64,000 bases of DNA from Siphonodentalium dalli (taxonomy: Eukaryota > Mollusca > Scaphopoda > Gadilida > Siphonodentaliidae), in assembly GCA_032622095.1 (NCBI GenBank), contig CP136069.1, positions 188,159,122 to 188,223,121 on the forward strand, in the 5' to 3' direction. Each line of letters begins with the position of its first letter. Positions within the stretch are counted from its first letter, which is position 1. Positions 2,136 to 59,250 of this stretch are shown piece by piece. The translations under genes and the position numbers were made by a program. The notes below the pieces were generated by a model. It was not told the origin of the DNA and made no database searches. It saw only the letters and a program-made list of their open reading frames with translations.

Positions 2136-2380
2136 AAAATGCGTGGACATATCGTAAAATGCGTGGACATATCGTAAAATGCGTGGACATATCGTAAAAT
2201 GCGTGGACATATCGTAAAATGCGTGGACATATCGTAAAATGCGTGGACATATTGTAAAATGCGTGGACATATCGTAAAATGCGTGGACATATCGTAAAAT
2301 GCGTGGACATATTGTAAAATGCGTGGACATATCGTAAAATGCGTGGACATATTGTAAAATGCGTGGACATATTGTAAAAT
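2136..2380. repeat. 20-bp minisatellite, 12 copies
   Basis: Unit ATATCGTAAAATGCGTGGAC, about 12 copies with no length change. The only variable site is the C of ATCGT, which is T in some copies; in order the copies read C C C C C T C C T C T T. Three units make 60 bases, so long reading frames appear in several frames on the minus strand; these are a by-product of the period. Confidence 0.95.
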
Positions 2381-4490
2381 GTTACACTAGGACATTTAAG
2401 CTAGGTCGTGTTTCCACAAACCTTGAATTCGGTGGATATTGGATCCAGGTGGAACCAAAACAGTGTGGAACCAAATTGTTTGGTTACATGTGGTATTTGG
2501 TTCTTCGGGGAACCAAATTTGAAGCTGTTTTCTTAGAGTGTATGTCACGATTATGACATCACGGATATACAGTTAATTGGAACGTACGCATATATGCTTT
2601 GGTGATATTCTGCACCTAATTCCATAAACGCAATCGTAACTCTATCCGCGTGTTTTGTGAAACATCCCTGCAGAATGTTTTTGCAAACTCACGATTGCCA
2701 TTACAGTTGTTGGGCTCAATTAGCAATTTGCTGGGCTCAATTAGATCGAATGATCTAAGTGTTTCAATCAGAGTTAGCAATTTTCAGACTCAGAATTTGT
2801 GCCGGTTGTTTATTTTCCGACACGGAATTCCAATTCTAAATACTCGCCACATTTTCAAATTACGGAATTGTACAAATTATTGTTTTCCGTTTCTGAATTC
2901 AGTCATTTTGATTTGCCGCTGAGTGACAGTTACAACGCAAAATAATATAAGCTAAAACACTTCAATAAAATCGTATATATATGACTAAAATAAAAAAAAT
3001 GTAAAATTACGCTGTACGCTCGATTATCATCGATAGGTATGTAATGATTATATGTTGATAACTTGCCATATAATTTGGAGGAATATAATTGATTTTACAG
3101 GTTTGAACAAATTGCGAAATGTGTTTTACATGTACCGCGAATAACAGGGGAGATCGTTTACTCGCACGAATCTATAGTCAAATTAACCAAATAAGCCAAA
3201 TTTCCATTATTTCAATAAAGGTACTGTTTCAATTCTACGTTATTGGTTGCTATATACGAGCTAATGTTTTTGCAAATAATGAATGAAAAAAGTGTTTTTT
3301 CTGTTTTTACAATTTTAACCCTATTACTACTGTCACGATTGTCAGTGCTGGGCCATCGTGGGGATTCATGACGATGTGGCATAATGATATTGTATCAGTT
3401 GTAAATGTAGTTTGTACAAAATGCCTGTTGATGTTAATACAAAGTCATTTGAGTAAATATATTCCAGTAATGCCCATTACCTGAACACATATATGAAATT
3501 AAAAGCAAATAATTTCCTTCAAGTTAAGACTGGTATGTTTTACCAACCATAGATTCATGATCACTAGTCATTAGTAATGTAAAACCTCCATGTCTTTCTG
3601 TGGACAGCAATATAACAATTATTTACCATGCATACTTGTTACTATTGTGTGAGTTATAATTTGTGACTCCTTGGAATTTGAATACACGCAACTCATATTC
3701 GTTCCTCAACCATATTCTGATTAATATTATGTATGATGTACTGCATGCACACTATACCGGTACTCAATACATAACACATGGAGCAATGCTGTCATTCTTG
3801 ATACCATTGTCTTTATTTACACTGGTTCACACCCTTAGAAAGAACATATATAAATCCAAACTATTAAGCCATTAAGCCAATATTGGAATTTTACATTACT
3901 CAAAACCAAACAGGGCACACATCCCAGACAAGACCCCTAGCCATTGTAATCGGTACGGTGCTCACCCCTCCCAAACGAACGCACATTGCCATTGTAAGCG
4001 TTATGACTTGCCCTGAAACCGCTTCCATGATACAACGCGAAGAACGACCAGCCGATGCCAAATTTGGCACCCATTACGTTTACCCACTGGCCAGTTTCGT
4101 GCTCCCCCTATTCCGAGATAATGTATTGTGGGAGAACACTTAATACCTTTGATTTGACCTCGGTCAGTTGGTGGCAGATGACTTGGGGTGTTATTTTCTT
4201 ATAAACCCGGTCTCACTGACGCTATCCAATATATAACCTTCGATGCAGGTGAGATAGATACACCCGCATGGAATGTCTCGCGTTATGTAAACAAAATAAA
4301 AAGCGTTTAGGGTGCACCCCTATATATACTCTTGAAATACCGGGGGGGCACAAAGCTTACCAAGGAGCTAAGTCGTGAGTCATGATGAGTGCTAAATATG
4401 TCATCGGCAGGTCACGTTGGATGGCAGACTTTGTTTCATGGCATGTCACGAGAAGACCGTAACGCATATACAACGGTTATAGGGTCTCCG
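2381..4490. other. Stretch without a supported feature
   Basis: AT-rich unique-looking sequence with short open frames only. No convincing splice-flanked exon, tRNA or TIR element was seen. A frame at 3883-4143 on the plus strand has no recognisable domain. Confidence 0.4.
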
Positions 4491-7812: not shown

Positions 7813-8032
7813 TCTCATATATATTTTGAAGACCTCTGTCTGTATGTTTGTTTGTCTGTCTGTCTGTCTGTCTGTCATTAATACAAATCTACGATTCTCG
7901 ACCGATCGGGACGAAACTTGGTACGTGTGTGTAGTTTGACCAAGCGGTGAACGTTGTCGTATTGGCGGGTAGAGCTATCGACTTGAAATTTTGTTTTTTA
8001 ATAGCCCGGACAACGTCGGGCTCATCGGCTAG
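7813..8032 (+). mobile_element. HINE unit 1 (220 bp, no core repeat)
   Basis: Complete 5' and 3' ends but the core is absent: ATTGGCG passes directly into GGTAGAGCTATCGACTTG. This is the shortest unit and shows what the element needs at minimum. Confidence 0.8.
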
Positions 8033-8428
8033 TCTCATATATATTTTGAAGACCTCTGTCTGTATGTATGTTTGTTTGTTTGTTTGTTTGTCTGTCTGTC
8101 ATTTATACAAATCTACGATTCTCGACCGATCGGGACGAAACTTGGTACGTGTGTGTAGTTTGACCAGGCGGTGAACGTTGTCGTATTGGCGAGCCCGTGC
8201 GGCGCCCGCTTCGCGCATGCGCAGACGAGATCTCGGAAACGGGTGGAGCTATCGACTTGAAATTTGCTATGTGAATGTATCTTGCCCCGGATACGAATTT
8301 TATCAGGTCGCCGAGCCCGTGCGACGCCAGCTTCGCGCATGCGCAGACCAGATCTCGGAAACGGGTAGAGCTATCGACTTGAAATTTTGTTTTTGAATAG
8401 CCCGGACAACGTCGGGCTCATCGGCTAG
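8033..8428 (+). mobile_element. HINE unit 2 (396 bp, two cores)
   Basis: Two core repeats; the first has GCGGCGCCCGC, the last has GACCAGATCTCGG. It has the same length and nearly the same sequence as unit 5. Confidence 0.8.
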
Positions 8429-9060
8429 TCTCATATATATTTTGAAGACCTCTGTCTGTCTGTCTGTATGTTTGTCTGTATGTTTGTCATTAATACAAAT
8501 CTACGATTCTCGACCGATCGGGACGAAACTTGGTGCGTGTGTGTAGTTTGACCAGGCGGTTGACGTTGTCGTATTGGCGAGCCCGTGCGGCGCCCGCTTC
8601 GCGCATGCGCAGACGAGATCTCGGAAACGGGTGGAGCTATCGACTTCAAATTTGCTATGTGAATGTATCTTGCCCCGGATACGAATTTTATCGGGTCGCC
8701 GAGCCCGTGCGACGCCAGCTTCGCGCATGCGCAGACCAGATCTCGGAAACGGGTGGAGCTATCGACTTGAAATTTGCTATGTGAATGTATCTTGCCCCGG
8801 ATACGAATTTGATCGGGTCGCCGAGCCCGTGCGACGCCAGCTTCGCGCATGCGCAGACGAGATCTCTGAAACGGGTGGAGCTATCGACTTGAAATTTGGT
8901 ATGTGAATGTATCTTGCCCCGGATACGAATTTTATCGGGTCGCCGAGCCCGTGCGATGTCAGATTCGCGCATGCGCAGACCAGATCTCGAAAACGGGTGG
9001 AGCTATCGACTTGAAATTTGGTTTTTGAATAGTCCGGACAACGTCGGGCTCATCGGCTAG
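8429..9060 (+). mobile_element. HINE unit 3 (632 bp, four cores)
   Basis: Cores begin near 8579, 8701, 8823 and 8945, exactly 122 bp apart. The 3' hairpin carries AGTCCGG in place of AGCCCGG, weakening the stem. It is the counterpart of unit 6. Confidence 0.8.
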
Positions 9061-9700
9061 TCTCATATATATTTTGAAGACCTCTGTCTGTCTGTATGTT
9101 TGTCTGTATGTTTGTCTGTATGTTTGTCATTAATACAAATCTACGATTCTCGACCGATCGGGACCAAACTTGGTACGTGTGTGTAGTTTGACCAGGCGGT
9201 GGACGTTGTCGTATTGGCGAGCCCGTGCGGCGCCCGCTTCGCGCATGCGCAGACGAGATCTCGGAAACGGGTGGAGCTATCGACTTGAAATTTGCTATGT
9301 GAATGTATCTTGCCCCGGATACGAATTTTATCGGGTCGCCGAGCCCGTGCGACACCAGCTTCGCGCATGCGCAGACGAGATCTCGGAAACGGGTGGAGCT
9401 ATCGACTTGAAATTTGCTATGTGAATGTATCTTGCCCCGGATACGAATTTTATCGGGTCGCCGAGCCCGTGCGACACCAGCTTCGCGCATGCGCAGACGA
9501 GATATCGGAAACGGGTGGAGCTATCGACTTGAAATTTGCTATGTGAATGTATCTTGCCCCGGATACGAATTTTATCGGGTCGCCGAGTCCGTGCGATGCC
9601 AGCTTCGCGCATGCGCAGACCAGATCTCGGAAACGGGTAGAGCTATCGACTTGAAATTTTGTTTTTTAATAGCCCGGACAACGTCGGGCTCATCGGCTAG
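9061..9700 (+). mobile_element. HINE unit 4 (640 bp, four cores)
   Basis: Four cores, complete ends. Two internal cores carry GCGACACCAGC. It is the counterpart of unit 7, which has one core fewer. Confidence 0.8.
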
Positions 9701-10096
9701 TCTCATATATATTTTGAAGACCTCTGTCTGTATGTATGTTTGTTTGTTTGTTTGTTTGTCTTTCTGTCATTTATACAAATCTACGATTCTCGACCGATCG
9801 GGACGAAACTTGGTACGTGTGTGTAGTTTGACCAGGCGGTGAACGTTGTCGTATTGGCGAGCCCGTGCGGCGCCCGCTTCGCGCATGCGCAGACGAGATC
9901 TCGGAAACGGGTGGAGCTATCGACTTGAAATTTGCTATGTGAATGTATCTTGCCCCGGATACGAATTTTATCAGGTCGCCGAGCCCGTGCGACGCCAGCT
10001 TCGCGCATGCGCAGACCAGATCTCGGAAACGGGTAGAGCTATCGACTTGAAATTTTGTTTTTGAATAGCCCGGACAACGTCGGGCTCATCGGCTAG
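9701..10096 (+). mobile_element. HINE unit 5 (396 bp, two cores)
   Basis: Matches unit 2 at 1,668 bp distance, including ATCAGGTCGCC in place of ATCGGGTCGCC. Confidence 0.8.
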
Positions 10097-10727
10097 TCTC
10101 ATATATATTTTGAAGACCTCTGTCTGTCTGTCTGTATGTTTGTCTGTATGTTTGTCATTAATACAAATCTACGATTCTCGAGCGATCGGGACGAAACTTG
10201 GTGCGTGTGTGTAGTTTGACCAGGCGGTTGACGTTGTCGTATTGGCGAGCCCGTGCGGCGCCCGCTTCGCGCATGCGCAGACGAGATCTCGGAAACGGGT
10301 AGAGCTATCGACTTCAAATTTGCTATGTGAATGTATCTTGCCCCGGATACGAATTTTATCGGGTCGCCGAGCCGTGCGACGCCAGCTTCGCGCATGCGCA
10401 GACCAGATCTCGGAAACGGGTGGAGCTATCGACTTGAAATTTGCTATGTGAATGTATCTTGCCCCGGATACGAATTTGATCGGGTCGCCGAGCCCGTGCG
10501 ACGCCAGCTTCGCGCATGCGCAGACGAGATCTCTGAAACGGGTGGAGCTATCGACTTGAAATTTGGTATGTGAATGTATCTTGCCCCGGATACGAATTTT
10601 ATCGGGTCGCCGAGCCCGTGCGACGTCAGATTCGCGCATGCGCAGACCAGATCTCGAAAACGGGTGGAGCTATCGACTTGAAATTTGGTTTTTGAATAGC
10701 CCGGACAACGTCGGGCTCATCGGCTAG
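10097..10727 (+). mobile_element. HINE unit 6 (631 bp, four cores)
   Basis: Matches unit 3 except for one deleted base (GAGCCGTGCG for GAGCCCGTGCG) and scattered substitutions. Shared private variants such as GATCTCTGAAACG in the third core mark common descent. Confidence 0.8.
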
Positions 10728-11271
10728 TCTCATATATATTTTGAAGACCTCTGTCTGTCTGTATGTTTGTCTGTATGTTTGTCTGTATGTTTGTCATTAA
10801 TACAAATCTACGATTCTCGACCGATCGGGACCAAACTTGGTACGTGTGTGTAGTTTGACCAGGCGGTGGACGTTGTCGTATTGGCGAGCCCGTGCGGCGC
10901 CCGCTTCGCGCATGCGCAGACGAGATCTCGGAAACGGGGAGAGCTATCGACTTGAAATTTGGTATGTGAATGTATCTTGCCCCGGATACGAATTTTATCG
11001 GGTCGCCGAGCCCGTGCAACGCCAGCTTCGCGCATGCGCAGACGAGATCTCGGAAACGGGTGGAGCTATCGACTTGAAATTTGGTATGTGAATGTATCTT
11101 GCCCCGGATACGAATTTTATCGGGTCGCCGAGCCCGTGTGACGCCAGCTTCGCGCATGCGCAGACCAGATCTCGGAAACGGGTAGAGCTATCGACTTGAA
11201 ATTTGGTTTTTGAATAGCCCACTGAAATTTGGTTTTTGAATAGCCCGGACAACGTCGGGCTCATCGGCTAG
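10728..11271 (+). mobile_element. HINE unit 7 (544 bp, three cores)
   Basis: Counterpart of unit 4 with one 122-bp core lost and a 26-bp duplication (TGAAATTTGGTTTTTGAATA plus GCCCAC) just before the 3' hairpin: 640 - 122 + 26 = 544. Confidence 0.8.
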
Positions 11272-11946
11272 TCTCATATATATATTTGAAGACCTCTGTC
11301 TGTTTGTATGTTTGTCTGTATGTATGTTTGTCTGTATGTTTGTCATTTATACAAATCTACGATTCTCGACCGATCGGGACCAAACTTGGTACGTGTGTGT
11401 AGTTTGACCAGGCGGTTGACGTTGTCGTATTGGCGAGCCCGTGCGGCGCCCGCTTCGCGCATGCGCAGACGAGATCTCGGAAACGGGTGGAGCTATCGAC
11501 TTCAAATTTGCTATGTGAATGTATCTTGCCCCGGATACGAATTTTATCGGGTCGCCGAGCCCGTGCGACGCCAGCTTCGCGCATGCGCAGACGAGATCTC
11601 GGAAACGGGTGGAGCTATCGACTTGAAATTTGGTATGTGAATGTATCTTGCCCCGGATACGAATTTTATCGGGTCGCCGAGCCCGTGCGACGCCAGCTTC
11701 GCGCATGCGCAGACGAGATCTCGGAAACGGGTGGAGCTATCGACTTGAAATTTGGTATGTGATTGTATCTTGCCCCGGGTACGAATTTTATCGGGTCGCC
11801 GAGCCCGTGCGACGCCAGCTTCGCGCATGCGTAGACCAGATCTCGGAAACGGGTAGAGCTATCGACTTGAAATTTGGTTTTTGAATAGCCCGGACAACGT
11901 CGGGCTGGTTTTGATTAGCCCGGACAACGTCGGGCTCATCGGCTAG
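11272..11946 (+). mobile_element. HINE unit 8 (675 bp, four cores, doubled 3' hairpin)
   Basis: The terminal hairpin occurs twice in a row (near 11887 and 11918), followed by a single CTAG end. Confidence 0.8.
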
Positions 11947-12467
11947 TCTCATATATATTTTGAAGACCTCTGTCTGTATGTATGTTTGTTTGTTTGTTTG
12001 TTTGTCTGTCTGTCTGTCATTTATACAAATCTACGATTCTCGACCGATCGGGACGAAACTTGGTACGTGTGTGTAGTTTGACCAGGCGGTGGACGTTGTC
12101 GTATTGGCGAGCCCGTGCGGCACCCGCTTCGCGCATGCGCAGACGAGATCTCGGAAACGGGTGGAGCTATCGACTTCAAATTTGCTATGTGAATGTATCT
12201 TGCCCCGGATACGAATTTTATCGGGTCGCCGAGCCCGTGCGACGCCAGCTTCGCGCATGCGCAGACGAGATCTCGGAAACGGGTGGAGCTATCGACTTGA
12301 AATTTGGTATGTGAATGTATCTTGCCCCGATACGAATTTTATCGGGTCGCCGAGCCCGTGCGACGCCAGCTTCGCGCATGCGCAGACCAGATCTCGGAAA
12401 CGGGTGGAACTATCGACTTGAAATTTGGTATGTGAATGTATCTTGCCCCGGATACGAATTTTATCGG
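11947..12467 (+). mobile_element. HINE unit 9 (truncated at 3' end)
   Basis: Normal 5' end and three cores, then the sequence leaves the repeat in the inter-core segment at TTTTATCGG. There is no 3' hairpin or CTAG, so the array end is a truncation or a later rearrangement. Confidence 0.8.
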
Positions 12468-32862: not shown

Positions 32863-33038
32863 GACATTCCTGCCGCACAAAAAGCCACCAGTCTCACAAG
32901 ACTGATATATCGAATTCCAGAACAAGGTATTCATTGGGTGGTAAACTCCTTTTGTGTTTATCACGTTAAGTGGTCCACTCAACAGTTTCTAATTAAAGAC
33001 CTTGGACTCTTGACAATCGTTATTGGTAAGTATACATG

Positions 33039-34470
33039 AACCCAGAGACTATTAACCGATCGAAAGTATTGCGACGGTCAATATACAGGTTTCGACAAAC
33101 TCACGGGTACATGTACATGTACACAGGGACTATTAACCGATCGGAGGGATTGCGCCGGTCAATAGACAGGTATCGACAAACTCACGGGTACATGTACCCA
33201 GAGACTATTAACCGATCGGAGGGATTGCGCCAGTCAATATACAGGTTTCGACAAACTCACAGGTATATGTACCCAGAGACTATTAACCGATACGAGGGAT
33301 TGCGCCGGTCAATAGACAGGTATCGACAAACTCATGGGTACATGTACACAGGGACTATTAACCGATCGGAAGGATTGCGCCGGTCAATAGACAGGTATCG
33401 ACAAACTCACGGGTACATGTACCCAGAGACTATTAATCGATCGGAGGGATTGCGCCGGTCTATAGACAGGTTTCGACAAACTCACGGGTATATGTACCCA
33501 GAGACTATTAACCGATCGGAGAGATTGCGCCGGTCAATAGACATGTATCGACAAACTCACGGGTATATGTACCCAGAGACTATTAACCGATCGGAGGGAT
33601 TGCGCCGGTCAATAGACAGGTTTCGACAAACTCACGGGTATATGTACCCAGATACTATTAACCGATCGGAGGGATTGCGCCGGTCAATATACAGGTATCG
33701 ACAAACTCACGGGTATATGTACCCAGAGACTATTAACCGATCGGAGGGATTGCGCCGGTCAGTAGACAGGTTTCGACAAACTCACGGGTATATGTACCCA
33801 GAGACTATTACCCGATCGGAGGGATTGCGCCGGTCAATAGACAGGTTTCGACAAACTCACGGGTATATGTACACAGAGACTATTAACCGATCGGAGGGAT
33901 TGCGCCGGTCAATAGACAGGTTTCGACAAACTCACGGGTATATGTACCCAGAGACTATTAACCGATCGGAGGGATTGCGCCGGTCAATAGACAGGTATCG
34001 ACAAACTCACGGGTATATGTACCCAGAGACTATTAACCGATCGGAGGGATTGCGCCGGTCAATAGACAGGTTTCGACAAACTCACGGGTATATGTACCCA
34101 GAGACTATTAACCGATCGGAGGGATTGCGCCGGTCAATAGACAGGTATCGACAAACTCACGGGTATATGTACCCAGAGACTATTAACCGATCGGAGGGAT
34201 TGCGCCGGTCAATAGACAGGTTTCGACAAACTCACGGGTACATGTACCCAGAGACTATTAACCGATCGGAGGGATTGCACCGGTCCATAGACAGGTATCG
34301 ACAAACTCACGGGTATATGTACCCAGAGACTATTAACCGATCGGAGAGATTGCGCCGGTCAATAGACATGTATCGACAAACTCACGGGTATATGTACCCA
34401 GAGACTATTAACCGATCGGAGGGATTGCACCGGTCCATAGACAGGTATCGACAAACTCACGGGTATAGTT
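33039..34470 (+). repeat. 75-bp minisatellite, 19 copies, open in one frame
   Basis: Unit CCAGAGACTATTAACCGATC plus 55 more bases, 19 copies. As 75 is divisible by 3 and one frame lacks stops, the array translates as a 482-codon frame (33036-34484) of a 25-residue repeat rich in Arg, with T-I-N-R-S-E-G-L-R-R-S and Q-T-H-G-Y. A TAA lies just upstream of the ATG and a TAG just after the array, so the frame is essentially the repeat alone. The only indel is a 6-base insertion in the second copy. A T/A site giving Phe or Tyr alternates in part of the array, hinting at a 150-bp higher-order unit. Many differences change the amino acid. I treat it as a minisatellite; a coding role is possible but not supported. 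Confidence 0.8.
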
Positions 34471-58359: not shown

Positions 58360-59250
58360 CCGAAAACCGCACCCCATGATTGTGCCAAAATAAACGGTGC
58401 GGTATGGTAGCCCACCTCATTTTATATTAGAAAAACCGAAAACCGCATCCTTCAAGCCATTGCGGTTGGCCCAGAAGGTGGAAAAACGGATATCCAATGC
58501 CGATTCGGTATTTATAGACCAATTTTGACAAAATAAATGGCGCAGTAGGGTGTCCCACACCAAATTATACTATAAAACCGAAAACCGCACCCCTCTATTC
58601 CGTGCGGTTGCCACAGGAGGTGGCAAAAAGGGTACACATTGACGTTTCGACATTTATGGACCGATTGTGACAAAATAAACGGTGCGGCATGGTAGCCCAC
58701 CTCAAGTTATGTTTCAAAGAACGAAAACCGCACCCTCTAGCCCATGCGGTTGACACAGGAGGTGGCAAACTGGACACACTTTGCCGTTTCGATATTTATG
58801 GACCGATTTTTACAAAATAAACGATGCGGTAGTGTTGCCCACCCGAGTTATACTATAAAAACCGAACACCGCACCCCTCTAGCCCGTGTGGTTGCCACAG
58901 GAAGTGGCAAAAGGGACACCCATTGCCGTTAACTAAATTTCGGTATGATATAGACATATTTTAACCAAAAAAACCGTGCGATAGGGTGGTTCATTCCAAG
59001 TTATACTATAAAAACCGAAAACAGCACCCTCTTCTCCCGTGTGGTTGCCAAATGAGGTGGTAAAAGTGACACACATTACCGTTTGAGTATTTAGGGCAAC
59101 AGCACGGGTTAGAAGGGTGCGGTTTTCGGTTTTTCTAACATAACGTTGGATGGGCCACGCTACTACACCGATTATTTGGGCTCAATCGGTCCATAAAAAC
59201 GGAAACGGCATTGGATGCGGTCTAGAGGGTGCTGTTTTCGGTTTTTCTAA
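58360..59250. repeat. ~145-bp tandem array with inverted copies at one end
   Basis: CCGAAAACCGCACCCC recurs near 58360, 58436, 58577, 58720, 58859 and 59012, with GCCACAGGAGGTGGCAAAA and GACAAAATAAACGGTGCGG between. Near 59120 and 59228 the motif is inverted (GGGTGCGGTTTTCGGTTTTT). CACAGGAGGTGG-type segments suggest small internal hairpins. Non-coding. Confidence 0.75.

What the first reader, a model, noticed from the sequence alone, without database searches (positions are those of the whole stretch)
7813..12467. Helitron/HINE units fused head to tail nine times
Every internal junction reads CGGCTAG|TCTCATA with no base between one element's 3' end and the next one's 5' end. Ordinary insertion would leave host DNA between copies. 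Exact end-to-start fusion is what a rolling-circle mechanism with failed termination or a circular intermediate would give.
Basis: partly seen in the sequence, partly recalled or inferred. Interest (0 to 1): 0.75.

Follow-up and report, generated by a model that had tools for sequence, protein, structure and literature searches.

The report
Helitron transposons stacked by 5'-end insertion
A run of nine small rolling-circle transposons joined end to end with no DNA between them was probably built mostly one insertion at a time, each new copy landing exactly in front of an older one, a pattern repeated thousands of times in this 2.2-billion-base genome.

Summary
The array is real: nine units at 7813-12467 with eight exact CTAG|TCTCATA junctions; the last unit lacks its 3' end. 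The units are short non-autonomous canonical Helitrons (TC...hairpin...CTAG, inserted between A and T), not HINEs. An autonomous partner has the same 5' end, a 3' end differing by one base, and a Helraiser-like Rep/helicase ORF.

Genome-wide, 8,207 of 16,426 exact 5' ends directly follow CTAG and 7,593 follow A; 13,410 of 17,881 exact 3' ends are followed by TCT. The rolling-circle reading is not the best fit. Different families are fused just as exactly: 1,480 A-to-B and 273 B-to-A junctions. Neighbours are nearly as different as copies from different loci, 3.5% against 4.2%. Insertion need not leave host DNA, because an element's left boundary (host A + element T + ATATAT) is itself a near-ideal target.

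Best explanation: serial insertion at left ends of resident Helitrons, plus local block duplication (units 2-3 = 5-6 here). Concatemers may contribute a minority. Tandem Helitrons are known; the scale, mixed-family stacks and evidence for left-end targeting are the new part.

The parts
7813..8032 (+). unit 1 (220 bp, no intact core repeat); 5' boundary host A|TCTCATA, 3' end CTAG
8033..8428 (+). unit 2 (396 bp, 2 core repeats); 99.75% identical to unit 5
8429..9060 (+). unit 3 (632 bp, 4 core repeats); 99.37% identical to unit 6
9061..9700 (+). unit 4 (640 bp, 4 core repeats); same microsatellite as unit 7
9701..10096 (+). unit 5 (396 bp, 2 core repeats), near-copy of unit 2
10097..10727 (+). 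unit 6 (631 bp, 4 core repeats), near-copy of unit 3
10728..11271 (+). unit 7 (544 bp, 3 core repeats); microsatellite of unit 4, 98.0% identical to unit 8
11272..11946 (+). unit 8 (675 bp, 4 core repeats); 5' end variant TCTCATATATATATTTGAAG
11947..12467 (+). unit 9 (521 bp, 3 core repeats), 5' end intact, 3' end missing
8003..8032 (+). 3' terminus of unit 1: AGCCCG-loop-CGGGCT hairpin, then CATCGG and CTAG; all of units 1-8 end in this way
8032..8033 (+). first of eight exact element-element junctions CTAG|TC

Best explanation
The array is a stack of non-autonomous canonical Helitrons built mainly by repeated insertion at the 5' (left) end of a resident Helitron. The family inserts between A and T of sites that read roughly A|TNNN(TA)n. 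Every resident element carries such a site at its own left boundary: the host A, the element's first T, then ATATATAT. A newcomer inserted there gives A|new...CTAG|old with no base between, and restores the same A|T site at the new left edge. Stacks should therefore grow leftward, may mix families, and need only an intact 5' end in the old copy; the 3' end of the oldest copy may be lost, as in unit 9. Local block duplication (unequal exchange) then enlarges some arrays, as with units 2-3 and 5-6 here. Shown: exact junctions, counts, host target sites, mixed-family junctions, neighbour divergence, an autonomous partner with matching ends. Inferred: the direction of growth, that the transposase treats left ends as preferred acceptors, and that this holds for the all-A junctions of this window, which by themselves fit other origins too.
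For: (1) Of 16,426 exact A-family 5' ends, 8,207 follow CTAG and 7,593 follow A, together 96.2%. (2) 13,410 of 17,881 exact A 3' ends are followed by TCT. (3) Exact junctions between families are abundant: A3'>A5' 5,764, A3'>B5' 1,480, B3'>A5' 273, B3'>B5' 2,202. Chains such as A|B|A (L083), A|B|A|A (L084) and B|B|A|B (L081) occur among 16 fetched B>A loci. (4) The 21 B copies compared directly 3' of A copies differ from each other by 12.9% (median), the 20 A copies next to a B by 5.7%, so the A>B junctions are not copies of one composite. (5) 79 adjacent A pairs in 37 arrays differ by 3.53% (median), 500 between-locus pairs by 4.15%; at most 1% different: 5 of 79 and 0 of 500 (a looser first count gave 3.73% and 4.12%, 5 of 89 and 0 of 395). 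Ten common variants agree between neighbours in 542 of 708 comparisons (0.766; random 0.704), sibling fraction 0.21 (0.04-0.40); a second marker gives 35 of 58, fraction 0.13. (6) TATATA lies within positions 3-13 in 48 of 66 unique host flanks, against 179 of 12,544 window AT sites; the element's own 5' end scores above 99.78% of AT sites. (7) Helraiser also prefers AT-rich DNA, most on the 3' side of the insertion, and its left end is AT-rich near the cut (PMC4778049, passages).
Against: Like-with-like junctions exceed a free mix (odds ratio 31), which concatemers, local duplication or family-specific targeting could each cause. Neighbours are slightly more alike than random pairs (Mann-Whitney p 0.002), and the nearest relative lies in the same array in 20.7 of 71 cases, against 2.5 in shuffles. 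The autonomous A pair on C2 is 99.8-99.95% identical in the ~5 kb compared. The age order expected from leftward growth was not found in the B>A sample: the 14 downstream A copies differ by only 2.9%, the 16 upstream B tails by 9.4% (A tails overall 6.8%); and by eye distance from consensus shows no trend along the A arrays. Two of the 16 fetched B>A junctions have upstream units with an A-type body and a B 3' end (L073, L076), so they may be like-with-like for a hybrid family. Target resemblance over 12 bp is not enough on its own. No reads and no empty sites were examined.
Confidence: 0.72

Rival explanations
1. Rolling-circle concatemers or insertion from a circle: the transposase fails to stop at CTAG and copies the element again, or a circle with joined ends is copied several times, so multimers insert in one step.
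For: Exact CTAG-TC head-to-tail junctions are found in Helraiser circles (PMC4778049, passages), and tandem Helitrons have been taken as support for rolling circles (PMC5876387, passage). One autonomous pair is ~99.9% identical in the parts compared. Up to 40% of adjacent pairs could be siblings.
Against: It cannot make A>B and B>A junctions. Neighbours differ in core-repeat number, microsatellite and common variants almost as much as random copies.
Confidence: 0.13
2. Unequal crossing-over or replication slippage: one insertion, then local tandem amplification.
For: Block duplications: units 2-3 = 5-6 in the window; near-identical units in L034, L032 and L038; 23 junctions within 21 kb on C1 with spacings repeated at 13.3 kb; 17 B>A junctions over ~90 kb on C2.
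Against: It needs a first exact junction between two elements, and does not bring different families or unlike units together. Most neighbours are not siblings. Of 54 clusters formed by the first 100 listed CTAG-preceded 5' ends, 34 hold a single junction.
Confidence: 0.1
3. End bypass and composite transposition: an element pair is mobilised as one unit (5' end of the first to 3' end of the second), and such composites spread.
For: End bypass is reported for Helraiser (described in PMC5148889, passage). L078 and L079, 0.8 Mb apart, hold chains alike in order, with B of 729 and 739 bp, A of 631 bp in both, and the same next start.
Against: B partners next to A are too diverse (12.9%) compared with A (5.7%) to descend from few composites.
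Confidence: 0.05

Closest known systems
Canonical Helitrons (Helraiser / Helibat1, bat; PMC4778049, PMC5876387, passages read)
   Same: 5' TC, 3' CTAG after a palindrome, insertion between A and T, AT-rich preference strongest on the 3' side, homologous Rep/helicase (PDB 7lcc, E 1.8e-267).
   Different: Here half of all exact 5' ends abut another element's CTAG. Retransposed Helraiser insertions were not clustered round their donor sites; targeting of left ends was not reported in the passages read.
Tandem Helitrons of Metarhizium acridum (PMC5148889, passages)
   Same: Three copies in tandem; [quoted passage not shown]
   Different: One case, Helitron2-like, left undecided. Here thousands of junctions, with mixed families that favour 5'-end insertion.
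Tandem Helitron arrays in plants, centromeres included (cited in passages of PMC5148889 and PMC5876387; the original papers not read)
   Same: Head-to-tail Helitron arrays.
   Different: Cited as truncated copies (PMC5148889); [quoted passage not shown] Here the inner 3' ends of the window array are intact.
HINE / DINE-1 / Cg_HINE / Pearl (PMC4067079, PMC7492417, passages)
   Same: Microsatellite plus central satellite-like repeats plus a 3' palindrome in a small non-autonomous element; high copy number.
   Different: HINEs insert in T-rich TT sites and belong to endonuclease-bearing Helentrons; these insert at A|T and their partner shows no endonuclease domain.
IS91 and IS200/IS605 single-strand transposons (recalled; for IS608 only a search listing seen)
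   Same: Recalled: the target sequence stays next to the left end and is cut again by the same HUH enzyme, so a left end is also a target.
   Different: Bacterial, with four-base target motifs; the relation to the present case is an analogy only.

Membership tests
canonical Helitron | 5' TC and 3' CTRR termini | tested here: met
   TCTCATA...CTAG in all eight complete units and at thousands of exact ends genome-wide
canonical Helitron | insertion between A and T without target duplication | tested here: met
   7,593 of the 8,219 exact 5' ends not after CTAG follow A; in the sample 47 of 49 such starts follow A, and 140 of 141 complete units are followed by T. Empty sites were not examined.
canonical Helitron | 16-20 nt palindrome about 10 nt before the 3' end | tested here: met
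   family A: 6-bp stem, 8-nt loop, 10 nt before the end, though 13 of 200 shuffles fold as well (z -1.79); weak in family B (z -0.27)
canonical Helitron | autonomous partner with Rep and PIF1-type helicase | tested here: met
   1,649-aa ORF in L088 with Helitron_like_N (4.5e-46) and PIF1 (3.5e-67), similar to Helraiser over residues 203-1626; 22-base 5' end identical, 3' end differing by one base
HINE / Helentron | insertion in T-rich TT sites | tested here: not met
   A|T with TATATA downstream
HINE / Helentron | endonuclease domain in the autonomous partner | tested here: not met
   none among the 6 Pfam families at E up to 0.01 in the A-family ORF; one protein examined
HINE / Helentron | subterminal inverted repeats | not tested
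   no search made
rolling-circle concatemer | neighbouring units identical at birth | tested here: not met
   5 of 79 adjacent pairs at most 1% different; implied sibling fraction 0.21, 0.04-0.40. Not met as the main origin; a minority is allowed.
rolling-circle concatemer | an element's 3' end joins only its own 5' end | tested here: not met
   1,480 A>B and 273 B>A exact junctions
truncated tandem Helitrons as cited for plants | inner copies truncated at the 3' end | tested here: not met
   3' ends intact at all eight junctions of the window array
truncated tandem Helitrons as cited for plants | concentration in centromeres | not tested
   centromere positions in this genome not known to me

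The most novel reading that the evidence does not exclude
Resident Helitron left ends are active acceptors, not merely lucky AT-rich sites. The transposase treats the A|TC boundary of a resident copy, the very place it cuts to start transposition, as its preferred landing site, across families. A rough estimate puts insertions per left end at about 36 to 670 times the rate at host A|T sites of equal 12-bp score (it rests on a 59-kb background from this window, 66 host sites and assumed numbers of left ends). Helitrons would then form self-renewing, leftward-growing, multi-family stacks, a form of targeting that keeps new copies off the host's genes and seeds satellite DNA.
Probability: 0.45. 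Interest if true: 0.75.

Novelty: new variant of a known kind. Interest (0 to 1): 0.58.

Why it matters
Tandem Helitrons are cited as support for rolling-circle transposition (PMC5876387, passage). If such arrays can be built by insertion at left ends, that inference weakens, and a simple rule (the target site is regenerated at the 5' boundary) explains exact junctions, mixed-family chains and intact inner 3' ends. It also offers a route from dispersed transposons to satellite-like DNA, and a case where a transposon's favoured target is other transposons. The Helitrons look young (about 4% between copies, open frames of about 1,650 codons), so it should be directly testable.

Tried and rejected
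Age gradient along A arrays: only 1-4 differences per module in most units, judged by eye, no trend; not used as support. B>A age order: opposite to a simple expectation, reported against. Paralogous loci L021 and L030 (same 5' flank and same following B start, three and four units): they share two units and look like a segmental duplicate, so they give no empty site. The first unit definitions merged some units, and those let some B starts pass as A starts; one search repeats the neighbour test with strict A units and its numbers are the ones used. still rests on the units, kept only if they hold the A 5' module. Rejected: HINE membership, chance, host DNA between copies. Assembly artefact is thought unlikely (thousands of junctions, unlike units) but was not tested. 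On print: searches of the open PMC library listed no paper whose listing, or passages that I read, showed genome-wide stacking at 5' ends; I read passages of six papers only, and most subscription papers are not held.

Dropped rows: one search used 66 of 100 listed flanks (73 unique; the pure TA run and six element-like starts removed; all flanks begin T then A/G by the search pattern). One search used 141 complete strict A units from 63 stretches (62 loci and the window; L041-L049 and L072-L088 not included). One search had 149 units and 395 of 400 random draws (five fell in one locus). One search used 143 of those 149. One search used 16 of 273 B>A junctions, all on C1. The fetched arrays and singletons lie on C1 below 54 Mb, chosen from the first 100 places listed by the pattern searches, the arrays for having junctions, so array-to-singleton ratios are not estimated from them.
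Full report
WHAT IS THERE. The window holds nine units from 7813 to 12467, joined by eight exact CTAG|TCTCATA junctions. Each unit starts TCTCATATATATTTTGAAGACC (unit 8 with a small variant), then a TCTG/TATG microsatellite, a unique stretch (ACAAATCTACGATTCTCGACCG...), 0 to 4 core repeats of about 122 bp, and, in units 1-8, the tail AGCCCGGACAACGTCGGGCTCATCGGCTAG (unit 3 also has it from CCGGAC on) with a 6-bp hairpin. Unit 1 follows a host A. Unit 9 breaks off in a core repeat and has no CTAG end. Adjacent units are 96.1-98.0% identical, while units 2 and 5 are 99.75% and units 3 and 6 are 99.37% identical. So at least one block of about two units was duplicated locally; unit 7 has the microsatellite of unit 4 and is closest overall to unit 8 (98.0%), as an unequal exchange would leave it.

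WHOLE GENOME. G000 has 2.23 Gb in nine contigs. Exact counts (lower bounds by the tool's own note): 3' end GTCGGGCTCATCGGCTAG 17,881; 5' end TCTCATATATATTTTGAAGACC 16,426; the two joined 5,764. The reversed-letter controls of these three gave 0; the shorter pattern CTAGTCTCATATATA gave 9,731 against 11. Of the 5' ends, 8,207 follow CTAG and 7,593 follow A; 626 follow something else. Of the 3' ends, 13,410 are followed by TCT. A slightly shorter 3' pattern followed by T and then A or G, thus not by a TCT start, has 2,890 matches. The first 100 listed CTAG-preceded 5' ends fall in 54 clusters, 34 of them with one junction, so large local arrays do not carry the whole count, but they carry part: 23 of the 100 lie within 21 kb on C1.

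WHAT THE UNITS ARE. They are non-autonomous canonical Helitrons. On C2:141790964-141808110 two autonomous copies are fused with the same exact junction. Their 22-base 5' end is the family's, their 3' end differs by one base (GGGCACATCGG for GGGCTCATCGG). An A-family 3' end of the non-autonomous type stands directly before the first, and DNA beginning TATTATATATAA follows the second. The two copies are 99.8% and 99.95% identical over the 2.9 kb and 2.0 kb compared. The ORF of 1,649 aa has Helitron_like_N and PIF1 domains and matches the solved Helraiser protein over residues 203-1626 with E 1.8e-267. No endonuclease domain was found at E up to 0.01, and insertion is at A|T rather than TT, so the HINE label does not fit. 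The genome gave 151 Helitron_like_N matches, a lower bound.

MIXED FAMILIES. Downstream of many units stands another family's 5' end. The commonest seen, B, starts TCTATTATATATTTTGGAAGATCTG, has its own 3' end GTCGGGTCACCTTCTAG, and its Rep-bearing copies are fused too (L046, L047). Exact junction counts are A>A 5,764, A>B 1,480, B>A 273, B>B 2,202; odds ratio 31. Chains alternate: A|B|A in L083, A|B|A|A in L084, B|B|A|B in L081. Other starts seen after CTAG include TCTAATATATATTTTGGGAC and TCTACTATATATTTTGAGAC. In two of the 16 fetched B>A cases (L073, L076) the upstream unit has an A-type body with a B 3' end, so hybrids exist. B copies directly 3' of A copies differ among themselves by 12.9% (21 copies), the A copies next to a B by 5.7% (20 copies), so these junctions are not copies of one composite.

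NEIGHBOURS ARE MOSTLY NOT SIBLINGS. Among 141 complete A units from 62 fetched loci and the window, 79 contiguous adjacent pairs in 37 arrays differ by 3.53% (median), 500 random between-locus pairs by 4.15% (Mann-Whitney p 0.002). Pairs at most 1% different: 5 of 79 and 0 of 500. A looser first count gave 89 pairs at 3.73% against 4.12%, and among pairs three units apart 5 of 26 at most 1% different, which fits block duplication. Because a burst could make all copies equally distant, I also used common variants, most of which should predate insertion: agreement 542 of 708 between neighbours against 0.704 expected, sibling fraction 0.21 with bootstrap 0.04-0.40 over 37 arrays; a second marker gives 35 of 58 against 0.545, fraction 0.13. 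Nearest-neighbour counts in the earlier sample (20.7 of 71, shuffles 2.5) show that some local duplication is real.

WHY INSERTION LEAVES NO GAP. In 66 unique host flanks (T first by the search pattern) TATATA lies within positions 3-13 in 48, against 179 of 12,544 AT sites in the window. Scored on positions 3-14, the family's own 5' end is above 99.78% of AT sites, that of B above 99.91%. An element's left boundary is therefore a good target, and insertion there gives CTAG|TC with nothing between, and a fresh A|T at the left. Insertion at the right boundary would need G|T, which is rare: of 49 starts not after CTAG, 47 follow A, one T and one G. The resemblance alone seems too weak: about a million host sites would score as well, so left ends are used some 36 to 670 times more often per site under the assumptions tried. 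Either left ends are recognised by more than 12 bp, or selection removes insertions elsewhere, or duplication inflates the count.

MECHANISM AND STATUS. Shown: junctions, counts, target sites, mixed families, unlike neighbours, matching autonomous partner. Inferred: leftward growth and active left-end targeting. The parallel with IS91 and IS608, whose left ends keep the target sequence, is recalled. Against: like-with-like excess, neighbours slightly more alike than random, the near-identical autonomous pair, no age order in the B>A sample, no trend by eye along A arrays.

WHAT IS KNOWN. From passages read: Helraiser inserts at A|T with CTAG|T, prefers AT-rich DNA most on the 3' side, has an AT-rich left end, makes circles with exact CTAG-TC junctions, and shows no clustering round donor sites (PMC4778049). 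Tandem Helitrons are cited as support for rolling circles (PMC5876387). For three tandem copies in Metarhizium both explanations were named (PMC5148889). Tandem copies with truncated inner 3' ends are cited in PMC7492417. HINE features: PMC4067079. The wheat paper PMC13286980 reports A|T insertion and circles. The present case differs in scale, in intact inner 3' ends and in mixed-family junctions.

Noticed in passing
G000 C2:103714336-103803862 (minus strand): 17 of the first 100 listed B>A junctions lie in 90 kb, four of the steps being ~1.83 kb and several ~4 kb: a satellite-like array made of fused Helitrons (listing).
   Followed up: no
G000 C1:31736875-31757835: 23 A-start junctions in 21 kb with three of them repeated at a distance of ~13.31 kb, a segmental duplication of a Helitron stack (listing); part of it was fetched as L051.
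   Followed up: partly
L002:332, L007:794, L033:1446: Variant junction CTA|TCTC lacking the final G of CTAG; it recreates an A|T site inside a stack. L002 and L007 lie in the same host repeat on the 3' side and may be one event.
   Followed up: no
L046:2237-3093, L073, L076: Units with A-type core repeats but a B-type 3' end, in L046 lying between two B-type elements: the families exchange modules.
   Followed up: partly
G000 C6:36914596-36934946, C1:179793298-179817598, C9:50089810-50141471: Same-strand runs of three Helitron_like_N matches spaced about 8-26 kb; one interval of the C6 run was read (L047) and holds a B junction.
   Followed up: partly
window 33036-34467: Nineteen copies of a 75-bp tandem repeat, 94% matches.
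   Followed up: no
window 58378-59093: Five copies of a 142-bp tandem repeat, also scored as a 284-bp repeat.
   Followed up: no
window 2136-2381: Twelve copies of a 20-bp tandem repeat, 97% matches.
   Followed up: no
L088:403-5352 (A autonomous ORF): The N-terminal part has five stretches matching Pfam STPRs (score and three amino acid peptide repeats), best at residues 101-172, ahead of the Rep domain.
   Followed up: no
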